Assembly: GCF_029360705.1 (NCBI RefSeq)
Contig: NZ_JARKMX010000014.1
Location: forward strand, 682,001-746,000
Length of the DNA: 64,000 nucleotides
Direction: 5' to 3'
Source: Paraflavitalea pollutisoli
GTDB lineage: Bacteria > Bacteroidota > Bacteroidia > Chitinophagales > Chitinophagaceae
The notes under the pieces are model-generated. The model saw nothing but the letters and a program-made list of their open reading frames with translations. It was not told the origin of the DNA and made no database searches. Both the position numbers and the translations under genes were made by a program. Below are positions 1 to 45,371 of the stretch, one piece after another; position 1 is the stretch's first letter, and each line of letters starts with the position of its first letter.

Positions 1-700
1 CAGACAACTTCGAGCCGCCGTCGCGACCAAATCCATCATGGTCGGCATCGATATAATATCGTTTCATTGGTAATCCTTCATCGATCTCACCGTCGCAATC
101 ATTGTCACGGCCATCGGCCAGTTCCGGTGCACCCGGATAGATGGCGGCATCCCAATCGATGCAATCACCGCCTACCAGCACCATGCCGGCAATCGGTATC
201 GCCGACAACCTTGAACCTCCGTCGCGACCAAATCCATCATGGTCTGCATCGATGTAGTATCGTTGCAGGGGTAATCCTTCATCGATCTGTCCGTTACAGT
301 TGTTGTCTTTCCCATCGGCCAGTTCTGGTGCACCGGGATATACACTGGCATCCCAGTCGATACAATCACCGCCTACCAGCACCATGCCGGGAATTGGTTT
401 CGCCGACAATACGGAACCACCATCGCGACCAAATCCGTCATGATCCGCATCGATGTAATAGCGTTGCAAGCCACAACCTTCATCCACCAGCCCATCGCAA
501 TCATCGTCGATGTTATTGCCACAGATCTCGGTAGCGTTGGGATGCACGGCCGCGTTGTTGTCATTACAATCCTTGTTATTGGTTACATAACCAGCCGGAG
601 GAGCACAGGTGGTACCTTGTTTCTTATCGGTAGGGGAACCAAATCCATCTCCATCCGCATCGCGGTAATAGGTAATGATGAAGCCTTCATCTATTTCACC
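1..700 (-). repeat. MopE-type Asp-rich repeats, 201-bp (67-aa) period
   Basis: Near-identical coding repeats lie at about 11, 212 and 413, with a more diverged copy near 638. Each encodes YYIDADHDGFG, then a Gly-Met-Val segment, then a D-x-D-C-D/N-G-x-I-D-E-G loop. The similarity of the first three units at DNA level suggests recent tandem duplication. The array continues past the left edge. Confidence 0.85.
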
Positions 701-11243: not shown

Positions 11244-12329
11244 TCAGGTCGTTACCGACGTATTAGCTCCTGCGATCAACGGCTTCTTTGCATCACTGCC
11301 AAAGAACCGCCGCGCCCCCTCGCGGCCGCTTTCCAGCAACTCCTCCACCACCTTCTTCGGCAGCTTGCGCACCCGGCCCGAATGATTCAGTGTGCTGATC
11401 GTCACTGTACGTTTCCATTGACTGGTATTTGCCGCCTCCGGACTGACCTTATCGATCAGCGTTACATACACCGCTTTCATATAGTCTTTGAGGCTTTTAA
11501 TGCGTATGGGCGCATTGCCCGCATGCTGGCGGTTATAGGCGATCTGCTCCGGCGACTCCATCATCAGCCCCAGGGTTTCCGGGTTCTCCATCATCACATT
11601 ACGCGGCAAGTGTATCCCACTCACATACTTCGACGAATCGAACAGGAACAAGGGATAGTTACTCAGCGCACCACCATCCACCATCAGGTGCAGGCTCACC
11701 CCTTCCACCTTCTTATCGTACACCGCACCACAATCGTCGATCAGCACCGGTTTAAAGTACAGGGGAATCGATAGCGAGATGCGTACCGCATCCTTCACCC
11801 GCATATGCGGGTATTGTTCGTATGAAAAAATGCGCAGACATTGGTAGGTAAGGTCAGTGCCCGTTATATAGAGGTCTTTGTATCCTTTGGTCGCACGCAA
11901 CCGGTGCAGCTCACCCAGGGTGATATCACCATTGCCCGTTTTCGCAGCGATCAGGTCATGCAGCCATTGGCTGATCTTCTCTCCTTTGTAGTAACCAAAA
12001 TCCTTCTTCAACCGGTGTACGCCCGTTCCGAAGAACCACGATCCATCATTGAATTCCTGGGGCTTTACATAAGCCGTCAATTGCAGAATCTCACAGGGTG
12101 TATAGCCCACCGACAGCAAGCAAGCCTGTATCGCCCCAGCCGAGGTCCCTCCTACCCGCTCGATGCCTTTCAACACCTGCAGGCTATCCAGTACTTCAAA
12201 AGCCCCGGCATAGGCAAAACCTCGCACCCCGCCGCCTTACAGCACCAGGTTCTTATAACAAACCGGCTGCGCCATGGCCGTACCGGCCAGTGACACTGTC
12301 AATAATGCGATAAGTAGTATTTGCTTCAT
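11244..12329 (-). pseudogene. Patatin-like phospholipase interrupted by an in-frame TAA
   Basis: Read from the ATG at 12329, the gene encodes a signal peptide ending AMAQ, then PVCYKNLVL, then a TAA stop at 12239-12237 (codon 31). In the same frame it continues GGGVRGFAYAGAFE and a further 320 residues. Patatin enzymes normally read NLVL(S/E)GGGxRG at this point, so one codon such as TCA or GAA has become TAA. All else is intact: the oxyanion loop GGGVRG, nucleophile motif GTSAG, and catalytic Asp motif VDGG. A restart at the GTG at 12227 would lose the oxyanion glycines and the signal peptide. Upstream there is a plausible promoter (TTG, 18 bp, TATTTTCA). It is either a recent pseudogene or an assembly or sequencing error. 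Confidence 0.85.
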
Positions 12330-12362: not shown

Positions 12363-12588
12363 AAGCACCTCAACCCATTTAACGTTTTTTTAGACGAGTC
12401 TTCAATCACTTTTCGCCCGAGAATAATACTCATGGAGGATTGAAAAATATTTCGGTAAACGCAACGACACCAGCTTATTAAGCGTCTAATGTAACCGCCA
12501 TCACCTACCTGCCTTCTCAACCTTGCCGCCGGGCAGCGACAGGAGCCAGTAATGTCTTCTACACCCGCCCCTACGACGCCCCCTTATA

Positions 12589-12643
12589 GAGACCTTACCG
12601 AGACCTTATAGAGACCTTATAGAGACTTTACCGAGACTTCATC
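12589..12643. repeat. Five tandem 11-bp units, GAGACCTTATA type
   Basis: The units are GAGACCTTACC, GAGACCTTATA, GAGACCTTATA, GAGACTTTACC and GAGACTTCATC, directly abutting with no spacer. The sequence lies outside any gene. Confidence 0.9.
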
Positions 12644-12788
12644 CCCTATCCGCTCCATACCTTACCCAGTTCTTACAGGTATCAAACGGTAGCTTCTGCC
12701 ACTTTCTCCCCCATAAATGCCCGGATAATGCCTGACTACGACTTCCACCTTGCCCGCCTCATCACACCCCCTACGACACTCCCTGCCT

Positions 12789-12879
12789 ACTCCTATACTA
12801 CTTCTATATTACTCCTATAACACTCCTATACTACTGGTATAGCCATATACCAGTAACATACCAGTCTGATACCAGTCCC
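12789..12879. repeat. Two further 11-bp tandem repeat families
   Basis: From 12789 there are four direct units ACTCCTATACT, ACTTCTATATT, ACTCCTATAAC and ACTCCTATACT, then a variant ACTGGTATAGC. From 12847 there are three units ATACCAGTAAC, ATACCAGTCTG and ATACCAGTCCC. Both families have exactly the same 11-bp period as the cluster at 12589 but a different sequence. Confidence 0.85.
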
Positions 12880-12973
12880 CTACCACTCTCCCGCACGGGT
12901 AATAGGAATCCGCAGGCAGTCGCCATAAACCCCGAACGAGGTTTCAAAGCATTAAAGTCAACAGGAAAGCCGC

Positions 12974-37684: not shown

Positions 37685-37990
37685 GGTTCAGAAGTTTGGT
37701 CGCAAATATAGGGTGCAGCGCCGGATTAACAGATAATATTAACAGCCATATCACAGTCTGCGAGAGGAATAAATCAGACATTATGGTCCGAGACGCTTTA
37801 CCAGTTTTCGCTGCTGCATGACAAAGTAAAGGTTCCCAGAAAACATACAGTTTAATTTAATATATAATTCTACGAATGGCCACATAATGATAGCCTTCAC
37901 AACACATACGTATAAACAACCTTCCGTCGTCCGTTCGATTTTATATCCCGACCTCTTCAATAGCGCACCAGTCACCTCAAAACATCGATC

Positions 37991-38004
37991 GGTCAATATA
38001 GACC
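37991..38004. repeat. Isolated exact dyad GGTC-AATATA-GACC
   Basis: An exact copy of the 14-bp array consensus, 3.5 kb left of the main array. A weaker copy, GGTC-ATAAAA-CACC, follows at 38084. Confidence 0.75.
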
Positions 38005-39185
38005 TTTTTCATGGCTAGTACTTCTGAAATGATCTTCCCCCACCATCAGTAGCAGCACCTCAAATACCGGCGCAGCTCTACCAGGTCATAAAACACCTAC
38101 CAATCAATGTCTTCTTGCATCTGCCCTCCCCCTCAATTTACACCGTCAAATTGCAGGCTATTCCACAGACTATTTACGAATCATTTAATAAGCGCGCTGG
38201 AAGCCCTAAAATGATCAAGGAGGAGTCCTTTTCACGCGGTACCCATCGACCCTCCCCACGTGCTTGACAGGTCATTGGATCGAGTTCCTTTGCACTAAAA
38301 ATGGATGGACCAACCTCGGACACAGTCCCTGGAAAATGGAGAGGAATTGCCGGTTTAGACACCTCCCTATCTACCCTTCTCATTGGCCACATATTCCACC
38401 CTCCCACTGCCAGTTTGGCCGTCCACTAAATACGTTTTGCATTACCTGGTGTGCTTGGTTACAACTGCAGTTTTCCGCAGATCACCTCTCCAGATATCCT
38501 CATCGTCGCCAACCTGATACGCTTGCGACGAGTTGCATGACTAACGGAAAATTCAGACAGATCGATCCCCAATGGTTCAGCCAATTTTCTCTTCACCACT
38601 CTCACGTGCTAGTGAGGGGCCGCATTCTCAAGTAAACCAGGCCGCCGTTATTTTGATCGGGGGCACACTACCACGCTGCCCCTTTTCTATCATCCATCCT
38701 CGAAGTTGTTCACGGCTATCAATAACCTTGCATCGCCACGTCGGCAGCACCTTTATATTGAAGCCAATACACCGAGCGCGACTTACACGTCAGTGCGTTG
38801 GTCAACTATTATCGCGCACGTCAACTAGACGAACCGCCACAAAGCAGCCGTTCCACCCAACGGCTCTTACCAAAGCGCTATCCTCGTCAAACGTATTCAT
38901 CAGCAGCAGCAGCACGTCGCCTTAAAAGTGCGCCACCTTCCCATTAAACATAAAATAGATACTTGTTTTTATACATCTGTTTTTGAGCAACAGCCGACGA
39001 TAGCCGGAGCACGTACACTTTACGAGGCTTCGAAAACTCACGCTCCGTTGCGGACAATTTATTACAGCATTCAGCTAGCTGGTCACCGGAGAGGTGGTAG
39101 GCCGAAATAGTGCCCCGTTTCACCGAGCCTGTTCCCCTTTCACCTTTACACACAAACCGGGCTTTCGGAAGTAAATTTTAGCAAC

Positions 39186-39247
39186 GGTCAAACAAGACTT
39201 CATTCAGGTGAATGAAAAAGGAAACCCAAAATGGGTCTTATTTGACC
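39186..39247. repeat. Pair of array dyads
   Basis: GGTC-AAACAA-GACT (39186) and the exact GGTC-TTATTT-GACC (39234) are 48 bp apart, like the 42716/42763 pair in the main array (47 bp). Confidence 0.7.
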
Positions 39248-40153
39248 ACGACAGACAAGGCACGGAGTAGAACAATAAGCGCAGCCAGCGCAGGGCATTT
39301 TTTACTGGTCATACACCCACGACAAATGTTGACTGAAAACTTCAAAAAAACAAAGCCAGCTTTTTCTGTCCTCTTCGAACTGGGTCTGTTTCGCCGGAAA
39401 GGTTTCCGCGTCCCTGGAGATACGAGGATCTTGACACAAAAATGGAAGGAGGGAAAATGACTCTCCAAAAGGGGGCATCCAGAAAGTTGATGCCAGCGGG
39501 AGTCGGTGGTTTGTAATGGAAAAAAAGGACGGCTTAGGATGATTTTCAATAAAGCAACTCGTACCCGCCACCATAAGTTCGCGGGGAACAATTATCGTGT
39601 AAAATGGCCCGTCGTCTAATTCAATGCGAAATACAGGCAGATCCTCTGCGAGCATTTGGGGCATTTTCCTTATTGCCCAGAAAATGCATCGCCAGTCAAT
39701 TATTGCAATTGAAAGAAATATGAATCTCTCTTAAGGGATCTGAGGTGCGTCAATCCAAATTCCACAATTGGGAATCACCTGCATACTAATTACGGCCTTG
39801 GCAAACTTCTCCAACACCTGGTTTGCGAGCCAGCAGAAGTTATCTGCATCTCACTCCACTAATTCACTGCCGGCGTTCAGTATCTTTTATCAAATCGTAC
39901 CAGCTGAATGATCATTCCGTAGGTGGCCATCTGTTACTATAGTTATGCAACCTGTCAGAAAATAACATTCCCAAACTTTTTGCTACTCCGCGAAAAATGT
40001 TGCTTCAACCTCGTAATCATCTACACTCTCTGAAGAGGGAAGCCCAAACAAAAATTAAACAATATTCATATTCAATAAATTACAATAAGTCACGAAAGGA
40101 AGTTCCGTTTCAAATTCACATATAGCGAATTTAATATTCTTTCTATTTACCAT

Positions 40154-40777
40154 TTAATTGGCCTTCAAAAGAGCCCGGGCATTTTTGCCCTCACAGCACA
40201 ACAGGTCCAAAATTGAGCAATGTGGGAGGAATCCTGTACGGTCTTCAAATACCTGTCGATACAGAACCGGCGATCGAAATCTCTGGTGTATATTTTTGGG
40301 CAAAACTTCATTCCGCAGATCAAGCCATTCTGTCACTTCTATTTTTTCAACAGGCTGCGTCGTCAGGCTGATCGAAGTTGACCAACCCAATTGCCTGATC
40401 GTCCATTCCCAACATGCCATGTTCCAGTCGACGAGAAAATTTACCTGCCTCGAATAGAGACTTTCCAGTTCATCCCGGTAGAATTCGAACCAGGGCGACC
40501 GGTTGTAACAAGACACGATCGTTTTCCAATGTTGGGACTGCCAGGAATACCGGTTAGCTATTCGGACGTCCTTCGTCATCTTTCGTTGTCCCCGGCCTTC
40601 CTCGAGGGGAATACTTAAGCTTACAGGTCCTCCGGCACCTGCCAGCACCAATCTGTTCCTAAAACTCATTTTTTGCCAGTTCTCATATACGTCAAACTCT
40701 ATATGCGAAAAGTTATTTGCTATTTTATAAACATCAACTGGCGCTAAATATTCTATATCAATCAATAATGTACTCAT
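40154..40777 (-). CDS. WbqC-family protein
   Basis: The product is 207 aa. It has the WbqC-like pattern: YLAPVDVYKIANNFSHIEFDVYENWQKMSFRNRLVLAGAGGPVSLSIPL, then VRIANRYSWQSQHWKTIVSCYNRSPWFEFYRDEL. The family occurs in polysaccharide and other loci in many Bacteroidota; biochemical function is unclear. It is one of only two convincing genes inside the 37.7-44.3 kb region and is flanked on both sides by non-coding DNA. Confidence 0.9.
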   Translation of the reverse strand: MSTLLIDIEYLAPVDVYKIANNFSHIEFDVYENWQKMSFRNRLVLAGAGGPVSLSIPLEEGRGQRKMTKDVRIANRYSWQSQHWKTIVSCYNRSPWFEFYRDELESLYSRQVNFLVDWNMACWEWTIRQLGWSTSISLTTQPVEKIEVTEWLDLRNEVLPKNIHQRFRSPVLYRQVFEDRTGFLPHCSILDLLCCEGKNARALLKAN

Positions 40778-41069
40778 TGTAATACTTTATTTAGAAAGGC
40801 TTAGAGTGTTCCACGAAAACAGTGCAATTGGCTGCTTACTGGGTGGAAACACCGCTACAAAAATTACCAATGACTAAAGTTAAAATACTTAAAACTACTT
40901 AAATAGCTATTAAATTATAAGCTAACTATATTAGATGTTGATTAAGAGACGATTTCAGTTTTTAGAAACCTCGCTGCACTAATATTCTTAGCATAGATTC
41001 CGTTAAAAGTACTTCCTCATTTTTGGCGGAAAAAATTATTCCCCTACTTTGTGTCCACAAAAAATAGAC
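40778..41069. other. AT-rich intergenic region between divergent genes
   Basis: About 290 bp between the outward-reading WbqC-family and LEA14-like genes, so it must carry both promoters. A TACTTTG resembling a -7 box lies at 41045-41051. I found no array dyads here. Confidence 0.4.
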
Positions 41070-41519
41070 ATGAATAAAAGGCTTCTAATGGGCTTATTCC
41101 CTATCCTGGTTTTGTCGTGTGCAAAGCCAACTGGCTTCCAGTACCTGGGGGTTAGAAATGTTAAAGTGATCAAATTCGGACTTAAGGAATCAACGGTTTC
41201 TTCGGAGGTCGGCTATTACAATCCCAATAAATTTCCGGTTACCATGAAACAGGCGGAGGTGGATGTTTATGTGAACAACATTCTTTTTGGGCATAGTATT
41301 TTGGATTCAACGATTCGAATTCCCAAAAGAGACAGCTTCTATATTCCCGTCCTATTAACTGTCAATATGTCTACAACAGCCATGAGTTTGATTCAAACAC
41401 TGGGTGGCGGGCAAGACAGTGTGAAGGTCAAACTTGACGGAAAAGCCAGAGTGGGTCGAGGTGGAATTTTTATCAATTTTCCCATTAAATACAAGGGAAT
41501 GCAGAAACTGAAGTTCTAA
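41070..41519 (+). CDS. LEA14/WHy-like lipoprotein
   Basis: The product is 149 aa from the ATG at 41070 (a TTG 21 bp upstream is less likely). Lipobox LVLSC. The single domain has the LEA type 2 pattern of beta-strands: VKVIKFGLKESTVSSEVGYYNPNKFPVTMKQAEVDVYVNNILFGHS, then RDSFYIPVLLTVN. Such domains act in desiccation or stress tolerance in other organisms; the role here is not known. A long perfect hairpin follows and may terminate it. Confidence 0.85.
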   Translation: MNKRLLMGLFPILVLSCAKPTGFQYLGVRNVKVIKFGLKESTVSSEVGYYNPNKFPVTMKQAEVDVYVNNILFGHSILDSTIRIPKRDSFYIPVLLTVNMSTTAMSLIQTLGGGQDSVKVKLDGKARVGRGGIFINFPIKYKGMQKLKF

Positions 41520-41552
41520 ATGCGGCCAGATGCTGTAAAATAGTTTTCATTA

Positions 41553-41598
41553 AAACAGGTCATATAAGACTTTTAATATTGTCTTATATGACCTGTTT
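41553..41598. terminator. 18-bp perfect hairpin built from two array dyads
   Basis: AAACAGGTCATATAAGAC (41553-41570) and its exact complement (41581-41598) flank a 10-nt loop. Each arm contains one copy of the array dyad. It lies 34 bp after the LEA14-like stop, so it could act as that gene's terminator and also marks the array's left edge. Confidence 0.7.
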
Positions 41599-44255
41599 CA
41601 TTTTAACTCATCCGTATACACATTTTTTATAAATAGTCTATTTTTTGCCAAAACACCAATTTCAAGCATTCTGAAGTACTGATTATTGCAGCATCAAAAC
41701 CCTAACCGGTCGTTGGAAAAACTAACTGAAGGAGCAAACAAAAGGTCATAAATGACCTATTCCAATTTTTTGACTTATACTGTTTTTTACCGAAAACCGC
41801 CTAAACAGGGGTACTGCAAGAATCCTGGCAGCGGTCATTTTTGACACATTCGATAAGGTGTGAAAAACTGAAATTGGCGATTGTCAACTATAAAATGTCA
41901 GGCAACCATAGGTCTTATTTGCCCCGACACGATTTGCAGCGAGTTACCAAATTACATCCCACTGCAGTTTTTCGAAGTGCGAAACAGGGTTGCCTTGAGA
42001 GTCATTTTAGACTTGGCGCGTAACTGTAACTGAGTAGGAAGATCTTAAAATTTCCAAATTTGAAACTCCCCAAAATGTTAGATTAATGTTGAGAACATCG
42101 GTCTTTTTAGACAGCTGCTTAACGAAGTCGTCCCAATTTTTTTCCTCCCCATTTGCTGGAGATTCCCTAACCTCCACTCGCTCGATAGGTCTTATTTGTC
42201 CTTTCGTAGTTACGCTTAGGCCGTTCCCGACGCGCCCCAGGTTAGCAATTTTAGCCATATCGACTTTAAAATTCCGACTATGATAGGTCGTTTTTAACCG
42301 CCGTAAAAAGCGCTTTCAACAACTGAACTTATTAAATACAGACAAACCAATACGTCCTGTTTGACCTGCTTAGGCCGTTCAGAATTTCGCCCACTTGACC
42401 TGAAGCCAGGAATTCTTGGTCGCATTTTCTTAACCTGGTCGGTCATTTCCCATCAAACAGTCATCAAAAGGCGCGTCAACGAAGGTCTATTTTGACCTCA
42501 TCGAAAGTTATCAGCAGCAGAAAGGTGGGATATTCAAGCTGTTTTGAAAGGGAAAAAAAGGGCAAACTTGACAGTTCATCTTACCATATATATAAGGCAT
42601 AAATTAGTGGACGGCCACCTGCAAGTTTCGGGTAGGTGAAATGGAAGCAATCGGAGATTCCAGAACGAGTCATTTTTACCCTACTCCACTGGACTTATGC
42701 CTTCTCTCCAAAGTGGGTCATTTATAACTTATTTTCATCGTACACGGCAGTGACGGCAAGTGGGTCAAACTAGACATACAAATCTGAAGTACGGCCTACA
42801 GCAGTCCTAAAATCCTATCCGCACATTAGACATATTTGACCTATTTATCTACACTGCAGAGGACGGTATTTAAAGCAGTTTGAGATAATTTGAAGGCTGC
42901 CAAGGTATTTGTGGTGGGATAGATCAGGTCACAAAAGACTTTAAATGCGTCATCATCAAAGGTCTTTTAAGACCTTCCTGCAGGCCAAAAGTCAACAGCC
43001 CGGCGCCCTCAAAAGTGTCGGAGATTCGCTAAAGAAGGGGTCATATGGTCTCAGAAGTCCCTCTTCCAAAACGTCATAATAGACCTACATAAATGATTAT
43101 CCAAGTATGCCGGAAGGGTTAAATCAACCCTCCTTTATTGATTTACTGTGGTCAAAAAAGACATTTCATTTTGCCCTGCACGGGAGCTGGCAGCTGCCGG
43201 TCTCACGCACGGCAAGGTCAAAATTGATCTTCACATTAGGGGCAACTGGAATCGTTTTACTCACTAGTAAATAGCTTAGCTGGTCAACTAATTAGCATTT
43301 CAGGCAATTACTAGGCTCACCAGAAAGGAAAAACAAGCCCTGCAAAAAGGTCATATTTACCCTGTTTATTGCATCAGAAATTGGCTGGTAAATGGTCCCC
43401 CACCCCCAAAGGAAGGTCTGCCGTAAAGCACAAAGCCACCATCAGACATAGTCATAAAAGACCATTTTCGGATAATAATTATTTGTCTAAACAGACAGTA
43501 GCTGCCTCCTATTTTTTAGCAAATAACTGGGAATGCAGGTCGTTAATAAGCATCAAAACAGCGAAGATATTATCATCCCTGGTACCTACAAGTTGTCTAA
43601 TAAGACCTTAATAACCAAAACATGAAAACGTCTACTTCGACGTTAGCTAGGGCTATTTGATAGGTCGTATAAACTAACAGGTAACAGCCATAATGTCAGA
43701 AATGCAGCCCGTTTTGTTGCTGTTTTTAGACTGGAAGACGGGGCTGCTCGACTTCATTATAGGTGTTTATTGAGGTTTTTTTGAAGAAAATGACTTCCCT
43801 AGCTTCCAATAACATAGCAGAAAAAAGCTTTTCCTTATCGCTTCGGCCGTATAAAACGGGCACCTATTTAACTAAAAACTTTCTTTACGCATCTACCTCA
43901 ACCAGCAAAAGGCAGGTCTATTTAGACCTCCCTTCGATTACTACCTATTAGATCATAAATAACCTTTTCAAAAAGTGTTATAAACTCTTCCGCTTGCATC
44001 TCAGGATTTCGATTTCAACAGGTCATTTATTACCCGGTAAAGACCTCAGTCCCTTTTACCCAAATGATGACTTTCACCTAGTCCTTTTTGACCTTACCGC
44101 ATCAAAACTAAAAAAGACAAAATAGACTTAGTAGCCTGTATCCTAAAAGTCTGCTGTCATCCGGTTACGAAACGTCATAGATGACCAAATCAATAAACTC
44201 TAATTACGTCATCTATGTCCATCTTGTTGCACCATCAAAAAGGTCAAATAAAACT
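41558..44255. repeat. Helically phased array of about 40 copies of the 14-bp dyad GGTC-W6-GACC
   Basis: Degenerate copies share two 4-bp half sites and an AT-rich gap of exactly 6 bp. Exact copies start at 41744, 42484, 42961 and 43915. One- or two-mismatch copies start at 41558, 41833, 41911, 42000, 42100, 42188, 42286, 42353, 42763, 42828, 42927, 43072, 43150, 43216, 43349, 43450, 43484, 43594, 44021, 44080, 44173 and 44207. Weaker ones fill gaps. Successive distances cluster at 33-36, 45-48, 54-59, 65-67, 76-78, 88-89 and 98-100 bp, that is 3 to 9 times about 11 bp. Copies differ in the W6 core and intervening DNA is unique, so this is neither a simple tandem repeat nor a CRISPR. No gene within is convincing. 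The geometry suits a dimeric DNA-binding protein contacting one face of the helix. Confidence 0.85.
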
Positions 44256-44301
44256 CAATATTTGTCACTTTGGTTTTGCTCCTATATCCCGATTTAGGGC
44301 A

Positions 44302-44356: not shown

Positions 44357-44710
44357 CTACATTCCTCCCCCATCTTCGGGTTTCTTGCAGCATTTAGGCA
44401 GCTTTTTATAAGCCTCAGCGTCTGCAGTTACATCATCAGCATCATAGCCTGCGTTGGCAATAGCGGTCTTTACGTTTTCGACATTGGTGCGGTCACTGAT
44501 GAATGTCACTTTGGTCACTTTTTTCTTGTAATCAACGGTGACTTTTTGAACGCCATCCTCACGTTTCAGGAACTCTTCAATGCGCTTCTTGCAGCTTTCA
44601 CATTGTACGGTGGGGGTCTTGATCGTAACGTTTTGCACGGCCTTGGTCTGGCTAAATCCAGTTACCAGTAAGCCCAGCACAGCGATCAACATAAGAATTA
44701 GCTTCTTCAT
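44357..44710 (-). CDS. Exported HMA (heavy-metal-associated) domain protein
   Basis: The product is 117 aa from the ATG at 44710; the frame runs further upstream but the signal peptide (LILMLIAVLGLLVTGFSQ) fixes the start. The HMA domain has VQCESCKKRIEEFL (CxxC), then GVQKVTVDYKKKVTKVTF and NVENVKTAIANAGYDADDV. A Cys-Cys pair (KCCKKPEDGGGM) ends the protein. It probably binds copper or another soft metal in the periplasm. Its promoter lies within the last codons of pyrE. Confidence 0.9.
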   Translation of the reverse strand: MKKLILMLIAVLGLLVTGFSQTKAVQNVTIKTPTVQCESCKKRIEEFLKREDGVQKVTVDYKKKVTKVTFISDRTNVENVKTAIANAGYDADDVTADAEAYKKLPKCCKKPEDGGGM

Positions 44711-44726
44711 ACAGACATAGTTTTGC

Positions 44727-44734
44727 CAAATATA
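44727..44734 (-). promoter_or_regulatory. -7 box of the HMA-domain gene
   Basis: TATATTTG on the minus strand is an exact match to the Bacteroidota -7 consensus, 16 bp before the ATG. It overlaps the end of the pyrE region, so the gene can be transcribed independently of pyrE. Confidence 0.65.
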
Positions 44735-44735
44735 G

Positions 44736-45371
44736 CTATTTCCCATTCCAGTTGCCAGGATCCTGGCTCCACTTTAACAAAACCTCCTGCTGATCCGCAG
44801 AAACCAATCCTTTTTCAATAGCAAGATCTATGAGCACGGGATAATTGGTTAGTGACTTATAGGTAATTCCCGCTTTTTCAAAGGCATCCTTTGCCACCGG
44901 AAAACCATAGGTGAAGATAGAAACCATACCAATTACTTCTACACCAGCAGCTTTTAACACGTCAACCACCTGCAGGCTGCTTTTTCCTGTAGAGATAAGG
45001 TCTTCTACGACCACGACTTTCTGGCCAGCGGAGTAAGATCCCTCGATCTGGTTACCCAATCCATGCTCTTTGGGTTTGGGACGTACATATATATAGGGAA
45101 GTTTGAGCTGGTCGGCGGCCATAGCTCCCCAGGGAATACCTGCCGTTGCTACACCTGCCAGCAACTCCGCTTCGGGAAACTGTTCGAAGATCACATTACA
45201 CATTTCCGACTTTACGAAATCACGGATATAGGGAAAAGACAGCACCTTGCGGTTATCACAATAAATGGGACTTTTCCATCCTGAAGCCCAGGTAAATGGT
45301 TCCCCTGGATTCAATTTAATAGCATTAATTTGTAGAAGCTTTTCGGCTACTGCCTTCTCATTCTGGGACAT
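44736..45371 (-). CDS. pyrE: Orotate phosphoribosyltransferase
   Basis: The product is 211 aa and converts orotate plus PRPP to OMP in pyrimidine synthesis. The PRPP-binding motif VVVEDLISTGKSSLQVVDVLKAAG is at about residues 118-140. LNPGEPFTWASGWKSPIYCDNR at about 15-40 and YVRPKPKEHGLGNQIEG are family signatures. It is divergent from the Nudix gene (61-bp gap). Confidence 0.97.
   Translation of the reverse strand: MSQNEKAVAEKLLQINAIKLNPGEPFTWASGWKSPIYCDNRKVLSFPYIRDFVKSEMCNVIFEQFPEAELLAGVATAGIPWGAMAADQLKLPYIYVRPKPKEHGLGNQIEGSYSAGQKVVVVEDLISTGKSSLQVVDVLKAAGVEVIGMVSIFTYGFPVAKDAFEKAGITYKSLTNYPVLIDLAIEKGLVSADQQEVLLKWSQDPGNWNGK

What the first reader, a model, noticed from the sequence alone, without database searches (positions are those of the whole stretch)
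41558..44255. Helically phased array of about 40 GGTC-W6-GACC dyads in 2.7 kb of non-coding DNA
Seen: a 14-bp dyad with half sites GGTC/GACC and a fixed 6-bp AT-rich gap recurs from 41558 to 44255. Four copies are exact and over twenty differ at one or two half-site bases. Distances between successive copies (for example 89, 78, 89, 100, 88, 98, 67, 65, 66, then 34, 78, 33, 45, 33, 66, 66, 67, later 34, 54, 56, 35, 34) fall near multiples of about 11 bp, so most copies lie on one face of the helix. Cores differ and the DNA between is unique, which excludes simple tandem duplication. Inference: an array of sites for a dimeric DNA-binding protein, such as a centromere- or nucleoid-organising element, a regulator sink, or a structured locus-control region. 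I know of no described element with this design.
Basis: partly seen in the sequence, partly recalled or inferred. Interest (0 to 1): 0.9.

Follow-up and report, generated by a model that had tools for sequence, protein, structure and literature searches.

The report
Helically phased DNA-dyad array
A soil bacterium and its four sequenced close relatives carry, at one fixed place between two genes, about 3,000 bases of DNA in which 30-40 copies of a short palindrome, and the A/T-rich patches between them, recur at the pitch of the DNA helix, as if the DNA were shaped to be bent or coiled by an unknown protein.

Summary
Confirmed and extended. In 41520-44260 there are 4 exact, 19 one-mismatch and 15 two-mismatch GGTC-N6-GACC dyads; shuffles average 0.01/0.42/5.83. 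All 5 held genomes of the genus (Paraflavitalea, by one named record) have such an array at the same place (LEA_2 > array < HMA-PyrE), 2.5-3.3 kb with 32-43 scored sites. The arrays are nearly unalignable between species, yet keep the dyad and a neighbour-spacing rule of about 2.4+10.9n bp (held-out: 130 of 156 spacings within 1.5 bp, 28% expected). New: the DNA between dyads is helically phased too. In duplicated units half-sites are kept better (130/136) than spacers (610/783). No second array was seen in these genomes. Of four g3 sister-genus gaps examined, three are clearly and one weakly A/T-phased, without dyads. Best reading: a DNA-encoded architectural element (bent, plectoneme-prone DNA) with sites for an unidentified dimeric protein. 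An 11-bp duplication process is the main rival. Binder and function are unproved.

The parts
41558..44255 (+). Array: 32 PWM-scored dyads (genus consensus aaaaGGTC-W6-GACCt, core T-rich on its 3' side in most copies), helically phased with A/T-rich spacers
41744..41757 (+). exact dyad GGTCATAAATGACC
42484..42497 (+). exact dyad GGTCTATTTTGACC (matches the genus core pattern exactly)
42961..42974 (+). exact dyad GGTCTTTTAAGACC
43915..43928 (+). exact dyad GGTCTATTTAGACC
41553..41598 (.). inverted repeat made of the first two dyads just after the LEA_2 gene; could serve as its transcription terminator (inference)
   Evidence: self inverted repeat at array 34-79
41049..41519 (+). left flank: LEA_2-domain gene ending at the array; anchor for finding the place in relatives
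44357..44746 (-). right flank: HMA (heavy-metal-associated) domain gene, convergent toward the array
44736..45371 (-). PyrE-like gene (Pribosyltran domain), conserved synteny
40154..40777 (-). WbqC-like gene, divergent from LEA_2, conserved synteny
37685..40153 (.). second stretch, mostly without long ORFs, with two exact dyads (37991 GGTCAATATAGACC, 39234 GGTCTTATTTGACC) and weak A/T periodicity (5 of 300 shuffles reach it); possible outlying or eroded part. On this side the relatives show only isolated sites

Best explanation
The locus is a DNA-encoded architectural (nucleoid-organising) element. Shown by sequence: 2.5-3.3 kb of DNA between two convergent genes carries A/T-rich patches about every 11 bp, and every 2-9 or more helical turns one of these patches is a full dyad GGTC-W6-GACC. 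Inferred: a homodimeric helix-turn-helix-type protein binds each dyad through GTC/GAC major-groove contacts one turn apart. Neighbouring dimers contact or bridge each other along the phased DNA. The 10.9-11.2 bp pitch (longer than 10.5) favours right-handed plectonemic coiling of negatively supercoiled DNA, so the array nucleates a compact bridged or wrapped nucleoprotein filament at one chromosomal place. The extra ~2 bp per step could be untwisting or writhe taken up at each bound dyad. Likely role: a fixed supercoil-domain or folding point between convergent transcription units. The protein is unknown; what it does for the cell is the least certain step.
For: 5 of 5 genus genomes have it at the same synteny. 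Sites are dense only here: 0 positions at 15 bits or more in 400 kb of G002 versus 18-32 per array. A one-mismatch scan of five whole genomes gave 71 matches, 40 of them inside the ~3-kb arrays (19 of 25, 12 of 16, 3 of 10, 4 of 12, 2 of 8 in G001, G003, G000, G002, G004); the rest do not cluster. Spacing rule on held-out genomes 130 of 156; with held-out PWMs and one common rule 125 of 150. A/T periodicity of arrays, dyads included, 0.031-0.059 versus 0.0032 in pooled G002 noncoding sequence, 0 of 300 block shuffles each; dyads masked, tracts 0.147 versus shuffle maximum 0.130 and A/T autocorrelation z up to 5.4 with tandem zones left out; tracts locked to dyads (R 0.45-0.48). Half-sites 130/136 versus spacers 610/783 identical in duplicated units, Fisher p 1.2e-7; net spacing changed by 0, 1, 2 or 11 bp. 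Sister-genus g3 gaps: 0 of 300 shuffles in G105, G227, G006, p 0.01 in G268; 0 of 8 background segments of G227 reached 0.01. Precedent: PMC5418058 (passages).
Against: No binder identified, no experiment. A first candidate, a G004 gene near two strong dyads, has no match in three of five genomes. The window's own array fits least well (16 of 26; masked tracts z 2.7). A plain 11.23-bp lattice without offset fits only somewhat worse (rms 1.52 versus 1.18 bp). Half-site conservation is partly ascertained (sites defined by the motif in either copy), and two of the four comparisons share a unit. Spacer identity peaks at lag 45 (z 5.0), a sign of old duplications. 5 of 34 long G002 noncoding segments pass the periodicity test at 0.01, two with a best period near 11. 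g3 gaps lack the dyad, and five Niastella/Longitalea gaps are not phased at 0.01 (p 0.015-0.21). Whether ~11-bp periodicity bends or compacts DNA is disputed (PMC7537859, abstract).
Confidence: 0.5

Rival explanations
1. Mutational satellite: the genus has many 11-bp tandem repeats of unrelated sequence, and an 11-bp duplication/deletion process acting on an old tandem array leaves spacings in steps of 11; phasing would be a by-product, only the dyads (or nothing) being selected.
For: 9 period-11 repeats with 3 or more copies in 800 kb of G002, second only to period 7 (33) and just above period 8 (8); short 11-bp repeats of different sequence inside 3 of 5 arrays; one 11-bp deletion between duplicated units; spacer identity peak at lag 45 (z 5.0); 268-bp and 91-bp tandem units in G002 and G004.
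Against: Dyad-masked spacers show only weak base identity at lag 11 (z 1.9) but clear A/T periodicity (z up to 5.4 at lag 22); fitted step 10.8-10.9 rather than 11 in all leave-one-out fits, though steps near 11 are not firmly excluded; half-sites outlast spacers; tracts are phase-locked to dyads.
Confidence: 0.15
2. Titration sink or decoy: many sites soak up a regulator (host or phage/plasmid protein).
For: Many near-optimal sites at one place, downstream of both neighbours; 20 viral contigs hold pairs of the same kind of dyad, 14 of them 62 bp apart; three strong intergenic single sites elsewhere (L148, L151, L152).
Against: A sink needs no helical phasing of sites or spacers; no shared intergenic target site was found; the 62-bp step of the viral pairs does not fit the array rule.
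Confidence: 0.12
3. Segregation, terminus or centromere-like element (array bound by a partition-type protein), perhaps of mobile origin.
For: Multi-site single-locus array with fast sequence turnover and a kept rule, as in satellites. If dnaA marks the origin in G002 (7.47 Mb), the array (3.70 Mb) is only 0.45 Mb from the opposite pole.
Against: TA skew, with some exceptions, and a parS-like site at 6.05 Mb put the origin near 6.0 and the terminus near 1.75 Mb, so the array is mid-arm. parS-like matches occur in all five genomes, but the reversed control pattern matches about as often (1, 2, 1, 3, 1 versus 1, 0, 1, 2, 4 in G000-G004), so these are not secure. No partition gene among ten neighbouring proteins scanned.
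Confidence: 0.08
4. Transcribed array: each dyad is a small RNA hairpin in a long non-coding RNA (protein-sequestering RNA).
For: Most dyads have the same orientation; at pair 1-14 double changes are complementary more than expected (15 versus 8.1, p 0.004).
Against: Pair 3-12 shows no compensation (2 versus 3.9); pairs 2-13 and 4-11 have no double changes and say nothing; spacing quantised by the DNA pitch; no Rfam match in the array.
Confidence: 0.05

Closest known systems
H-NS negative regulatory element of E. coli proV (PMC5418058, passages read)
   Same: Two high-affinity sites ~10 helical turns apart on DNA with ~11-bp sequence periodicity, said there to favour plectonemic coiling and bridging
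   Different: Two sites at a gene's start versus 32-43 dyads in a convergent intergenic gap; the dyad is not an AT-only motif; H-NS was not searched for here
Lrp/AsnC (feast/famine) octamers such as Sa-Lrp and LrpC (PMC3584215, PMC8481266, passages read)
   Same: AT-rich sites, DNA bending and wrapping by dimers assembled into octamers; right-handed wrapping by LrpC is known here only from the title of Beloin 2003 in reference lists
   Different: The targets described in the passages are promoter regions with few sites; no Lrp was tested as binder here
ParB-parS clusters (recalled)
   Same: Several copies of a palindrome at one chromosomal place
   Different: Sequence, gap, position and phasing differ
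REP/BIME palindromes (PMC12306157 seen in search listing only)
   Same: Palindromes in intergenic DNA, often between convergent genes (recalled)
   Different: REPs are dispersed over the genome (recalled); here dense only at one locus
Genome-wide ~11-bp A/T periodicity (PMC4132750, PMC7537859, abstracts read)
   Same: Same period
   Different: Here concentrated in one locus, about 10-18 times the pooled average of sampled noncoding DNA

Membership tests
ParB/parS centromere | parS-type palindrome (recalled consensus) | tested here: not met
   TGTTCCACGTGGAACA with up to 3 mismatches: 0 in the window
ParB/parS centromere | origin-proximal position | tested here: not met
   G002: array 3.70 Mb; origin near 6.0 Mb by TA skew, or 7.47 Mb if dnaA marks it; far from both. 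Origin inferred, not mapped
REP/BIME | dispersed in many copies over the genome | tested here: not met
   0 positions at 15 bits or more in 400 kb of G002; outside matches in five genomes are scattered singles
CRISPR array | near-identical direct repeats with spacers of one length | tested here: not met
   degenerate 14-bp dyads, spacings 22-312 bp
Helically phased architectural-protein element (proV NRE-like) | sites an integral number of helical turns apart on ~11-bp periodic DNA | tested here: met
   with a constant offset of ~2 bp per step
Helically phased architectural-protein element (proV NRE-like) | bound, bridged or wrapped by a nucleoid-associated protein | not testable with these tools
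   no binder known
Lrp/AsnC wrapped operator | bound by an Lrp/AsnC-family protein | not tested
   -
Structured RNA | known family | tested here: not met
   only a tRNA in the window reaches a gathering score
Structured RNA | covarying stem | tested here: inconclusive
   pair 3-12 does not covary, pair 1-14 does a little, the other half-site pairs are uninformative

The most novel reading that the evidence does not exclude
A previously undescribed class of bacterial chromosomal locus: a 'programmed chromatin' array in which the whole 3 kb is written at the helical pitch of supercoiled DNA, with a dedicated dyad-binding protein assembling step by step along it under a nearest-neighbour rule (about 2.4+10.9n bp). 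It keeps its rule while its sequence turns over almost completely between species, as satellite centromeres do, and it arose on older phased, dyad-free DNA at the same place, still seen in a sister genus.
Probability: 0.35. Interest if true: 0.92.

Novelty: new variant of a known kind. Interest (0 to 1): 0.8.

Why it matters
If right, it is a natural, genetically definable bacterial locus whose conserved information is DNA geometry plus a repeated dyad. That makes a long-standing question testable at one place: whether helical phasing of sites and A/T tracts is selected to fold bacterial DNA. It also offers a bait for finding a chromosome-folding protein in a phylum where few are known (recalled), and the fitted step (10.8-10.9 bp) may be a read-out of the DNA helical repeat in the cell.

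Tried and rejected
RNA hairpin array: disfavoured by pair 3-12 and Rfam; pair 1-14 goes the other way. Origin/terminus/centromere role: dnaA, parS, skews. Plain GC skew was uninformative; TA skew gave a two-phase picture with some exceptions (e.g. samples at 5.205 and 6.049 Mb). dnaA does not sit at the inferred origin, and if it marked the origin the array would be near the opposite pole. Regulon of the binder: 33 places outside arrays fetched (29, 4); 27 overlap an open frame of 80 codons or more, 6 do not (L130, L138, L145, L148, L151, L152); no shared intergenic site, one homologous pair in a gene (L124/L139). One candidate gene (G004, L151) dropped: 2 of 5 genomes match, one only weakly. 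Array in other genera by exact pair pattern: 8 of 294 family genomes match, 3 of them in this genus (of 5); the other 5 look collagen-like or chance by eye, and the reversed control pattern also matches in many genomes, so this probe is crude. A relaxed 46-bp pair: 2 of 107 genomes, G002 (array) and G010 (one place, not pursued); of the two genus members drawn it misses G000. Viral contigs: 20 hits, two or three dyads each. g10 gaps (G013, G112, G182) are A/T-periodic too, 0 of 200 shuffles each, but G013 holds CACGGAT-type repeats and a gene-like stretch (by eye), so g10 was not counted as support. G179 (104 of 200 shuffles) and G033 (182 of 200) are not phased; G117 and G187 have gaps of 136-137 bp, not tested. 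For G105 only the first 1100 of 2444 gap bases were used, because the rest looks coding. From, 11 of 16 genomes were fetched; G177 (contig edge), G010, G109, G230 and G270 were not, so g3 rests on four of its five genomes there. In one search a fifth comparison (997/1535) was left out of the counts because it repeats two others; core positions (92 of 102 identical) were counted in neither class. A search of the paper library for six spellings of the dyad found 0 papers; searches listed none describing such an element.

Full report
What was claimed and checked. The window is bases 682001-746000 of contig 6 of an 8.76 Mb genome. In 41520-44260 there are 4 exact GGTC-N6-GACC dyads, 19 with one and 15 with two half-site mismatches. 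Dinucleotide shuffles of the array give means of 0.01, 0.42 and 5.83 and maxima of 1, 3 and 13. The rest of the window, leaving out 37700-40150, has 1, 23 and 209 in about 59 kb. No ORF of 100 codons or more lies in the array. The two-mismatch copies are only about twice the background and should not be counted one by one.

Same place in relatives. The LEA_2 gene before the array was used as an anchor. All five held genomes of the genus have it. In the four others a gap of 2.5-3.3 kb follows before the HMA and PyrE genes, full of the same dyads; I did not list ORFs in those gaps. An EM-derived 22-bp weight matrix finds 32, 39, 34, 43 and 32 sites in G000, G004, G003, G002 and G001, 180 in all. 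G2, C4 and C13 are at 99% and G11 at 90%; the six-base core is A/T-rich with a T-rich 3' side, so sites have a direction, the same in most copies.

Dense at one locus only. In 400 kb sampled evenly from complete genome G002 no position reaches 15 bits, while the arrays have 18-32 such positions each. A scan of the five genomes for GGTCWATTTTGACC with one mismatch gave 71 matches. Of these, 19 of 25 (G001), 12 of 16 (G003), 3 of 10 (G000), 4 of 12 (G002) and 2 of 8 (G004) lie in the ~3-kb arrays; the rest are scattered over about 8 Mb each and do not cluster. Of 33 outside places fetched, 27 overlap an open frame and no shared intergenic site emerged; three intergenic ones score 22-25 bits (L148, L151, L152) and may be real single sites.

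Spacing rule. Distances between consecutive sites cluster at about 24, 35, 46, 57, 68, 78, 89 and 100 bp. The pooled best period is 10.9 bp (power 107, n = 166), against at most 19.4 when each distance is jittered by up to 6 bp. A straight-line fit gives 2.55 + 10.84n with 1.18 bp rms; a fit without offset gives 11.23n with 1.52 bp, and 3.13 bp is expected for random distances. Fitted on four genomes and tested on the fifth, 130 of 156 spacings fall within 1.5 bp (G000 16 of 26, G004 32 of 35, G003 22 of 29, G002 34 of 38, G001 26 of 28), where 28% is expected. With weight matrices held out and one common rule, 125 of 150 do. First to fourth neighbours have phases 2.09, 4.08, 6.10 and 7.76 bp at 10.93 bp. 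So the rule links neighbours; it is not one global face. An untwisting or writhe of about 2 bp at each occupied dyad would bring the sites back to one face; that is inference.

The spacers are phased too. With dyads included, A/T autocorrelation has a period of 10.9-11.2 bp in every array, amplitude 0.031-0.059, against 0.0032 in 48 kb of pooled G002 noncoding sequence and 0.0029 in coding sequence; none of 300 block shuffles reaches it in any array. With dyads masked and tandem zones left out, A/T autocorrelation stays periodic (z up to 5.4 at lag 22). Masked A/T tracts of all five arrays together give 0.147 against a shuffle maximum of 0.130, strongest in G004, G001 and G003 and weak in G000 and G002 (z 2.7 and 2.5); tracts are phase-locked to the dyads (R 0.45-0.48). 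In 36 spacers of 99-102 bp, A/T-rich patches sit near 35, 46, 55 and 78 bp after a dyad centre, with weaker ones near 15 and 67.

Selection. Between species the arrays are almost unalignable: at most six short local matches per pair, the longest 116 bp at 71%, though the flanking LEA protein is 71-85% and PyrE 89-94% identical. Inside arrays, duplicated units allow a test: in four comparisons, two of which share one unit, 130 of 136 half-site positions are identical against 610 of 783 spacer positions (Fisher p 1.2e-7); spacings changed by 0, 1, 2 or 11 bp. Sites were defined by the motif in either copy, which favours this result somewhat. Position pair 3-12 shows no compensatory change while pair 1-14 shows some: a DNA dyad fits better than an RNA hairpin, not decisively.

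Where on the chromosome. In G002 the array is at 3.70 Mb. TA skew at four-fold sites changes sign near 5.9 and 1.75 Mb, with some exceptions, and a parS-like site lies at 6.05 Mb; that makes the array mid-arm. dnaA is at 7.47 Mb; if it marked the origin, the array would be 0.45 Mb from the opposite pole. Either way it is not near the origin. parS-like matches occur in all five genomes (1, 2, 1, 3, 1 in G000-G004) but the reversed control pattern matches about as often (1, 0, 1, 2, 4). The array lies between convergent genes, so it is not the promoter region of either.

Origin. Sister lineages keep the gene order. G033 (254 bp gap) has neither dyads nor phasing. Five Niastella and Longitalea gaps are not phased at 0.01 (p 0.015-0.21). 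Four genomes of sister genus g3 have 0.7-2.4 kb gaps. The tested part is A/T-phased at 10.9-11.15 bp in G105 (first 1100 bases), G227 and G006 (0 of 300 shuffles) and more weakly in G268 (11.6 bp, p 0.01); 0 of 8 other long noncoding segments of G227 and 5 of 34 of G002 pass p 0.01. Motif search recovers the dyad from G000 alone (LLR 147 versus 20 shuffled), but in g3 only A/T tracts alternating with G/C. The dyads look like an addition, in Paraflavitalea, to phased DNA present at the same place in a sister genus.

Mechanism. The data fit a DNA-encoded architectural element bound by a dimeric protein. For H-NS at proV, ~11-bp periodicity with sites about ten turns apart is said to favour right-handed plectonemic coiling and bridging (PMC5418058, passages); Lrp-type proteins bend and wrap DNA (PMC3584215, PMC8481266, passages). 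Against a simple bending story stands PMC7537859 (abstract). The strongest rival is mutational: 11-bp tandem repeats are frequent in this genus, three arrays hold some, and spacer identity at lag 45 betrays old duplications. It explains steps of 11 but not well the phase-locked A/T patches with little base identity at lag 11, nor the retained half-sites. I put the architectural reading at 0.5.

Novelty. Six text searches listed no description of this element. The principle of phased architectural sites is known; a genus-wide 30-40-site array of this design is not, as far as searched.

Noticed in passing
window 12582-12889: Three adjacent tandem repeats of 11 bp with unrelated units (CCTTATAGAGA, CTACTCCTATA, ATACCAGTCAC) in one intergenic region; such 11-bp repeats recur in the G002 sample.
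   Followed up: partly
L075, L076, L077 and other IMG/VR contigs: 14 of 20 viral contigs hold a pair of GGTC-W6-GACC dyads 62 bp apart; in L082 a third dyad with one mismatch lies 22 bp before. In L075 the pair lies near what looks, by eye, like a large-terminase gene. Possibly a phage operator.
   Followed up: no
G002 samples: Four-fold-site GC skew of G002 swings widely between samples (for example +0.47 near 1.41 Mb, -0.58 near 7.74 Mb), genes on both strands often moving together, while TA skew shows a roughly two-arm pattern.
   Followed up: no
window 3-468: 201-bp tandem repeat, 2.3 copies.
   Followed up: no
L013 about 11540-11660 (G001 array): A cluster of 11-bp CCAGAGATATT-type repeats followed by an inverted copy inside the array.
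   Followed up: no
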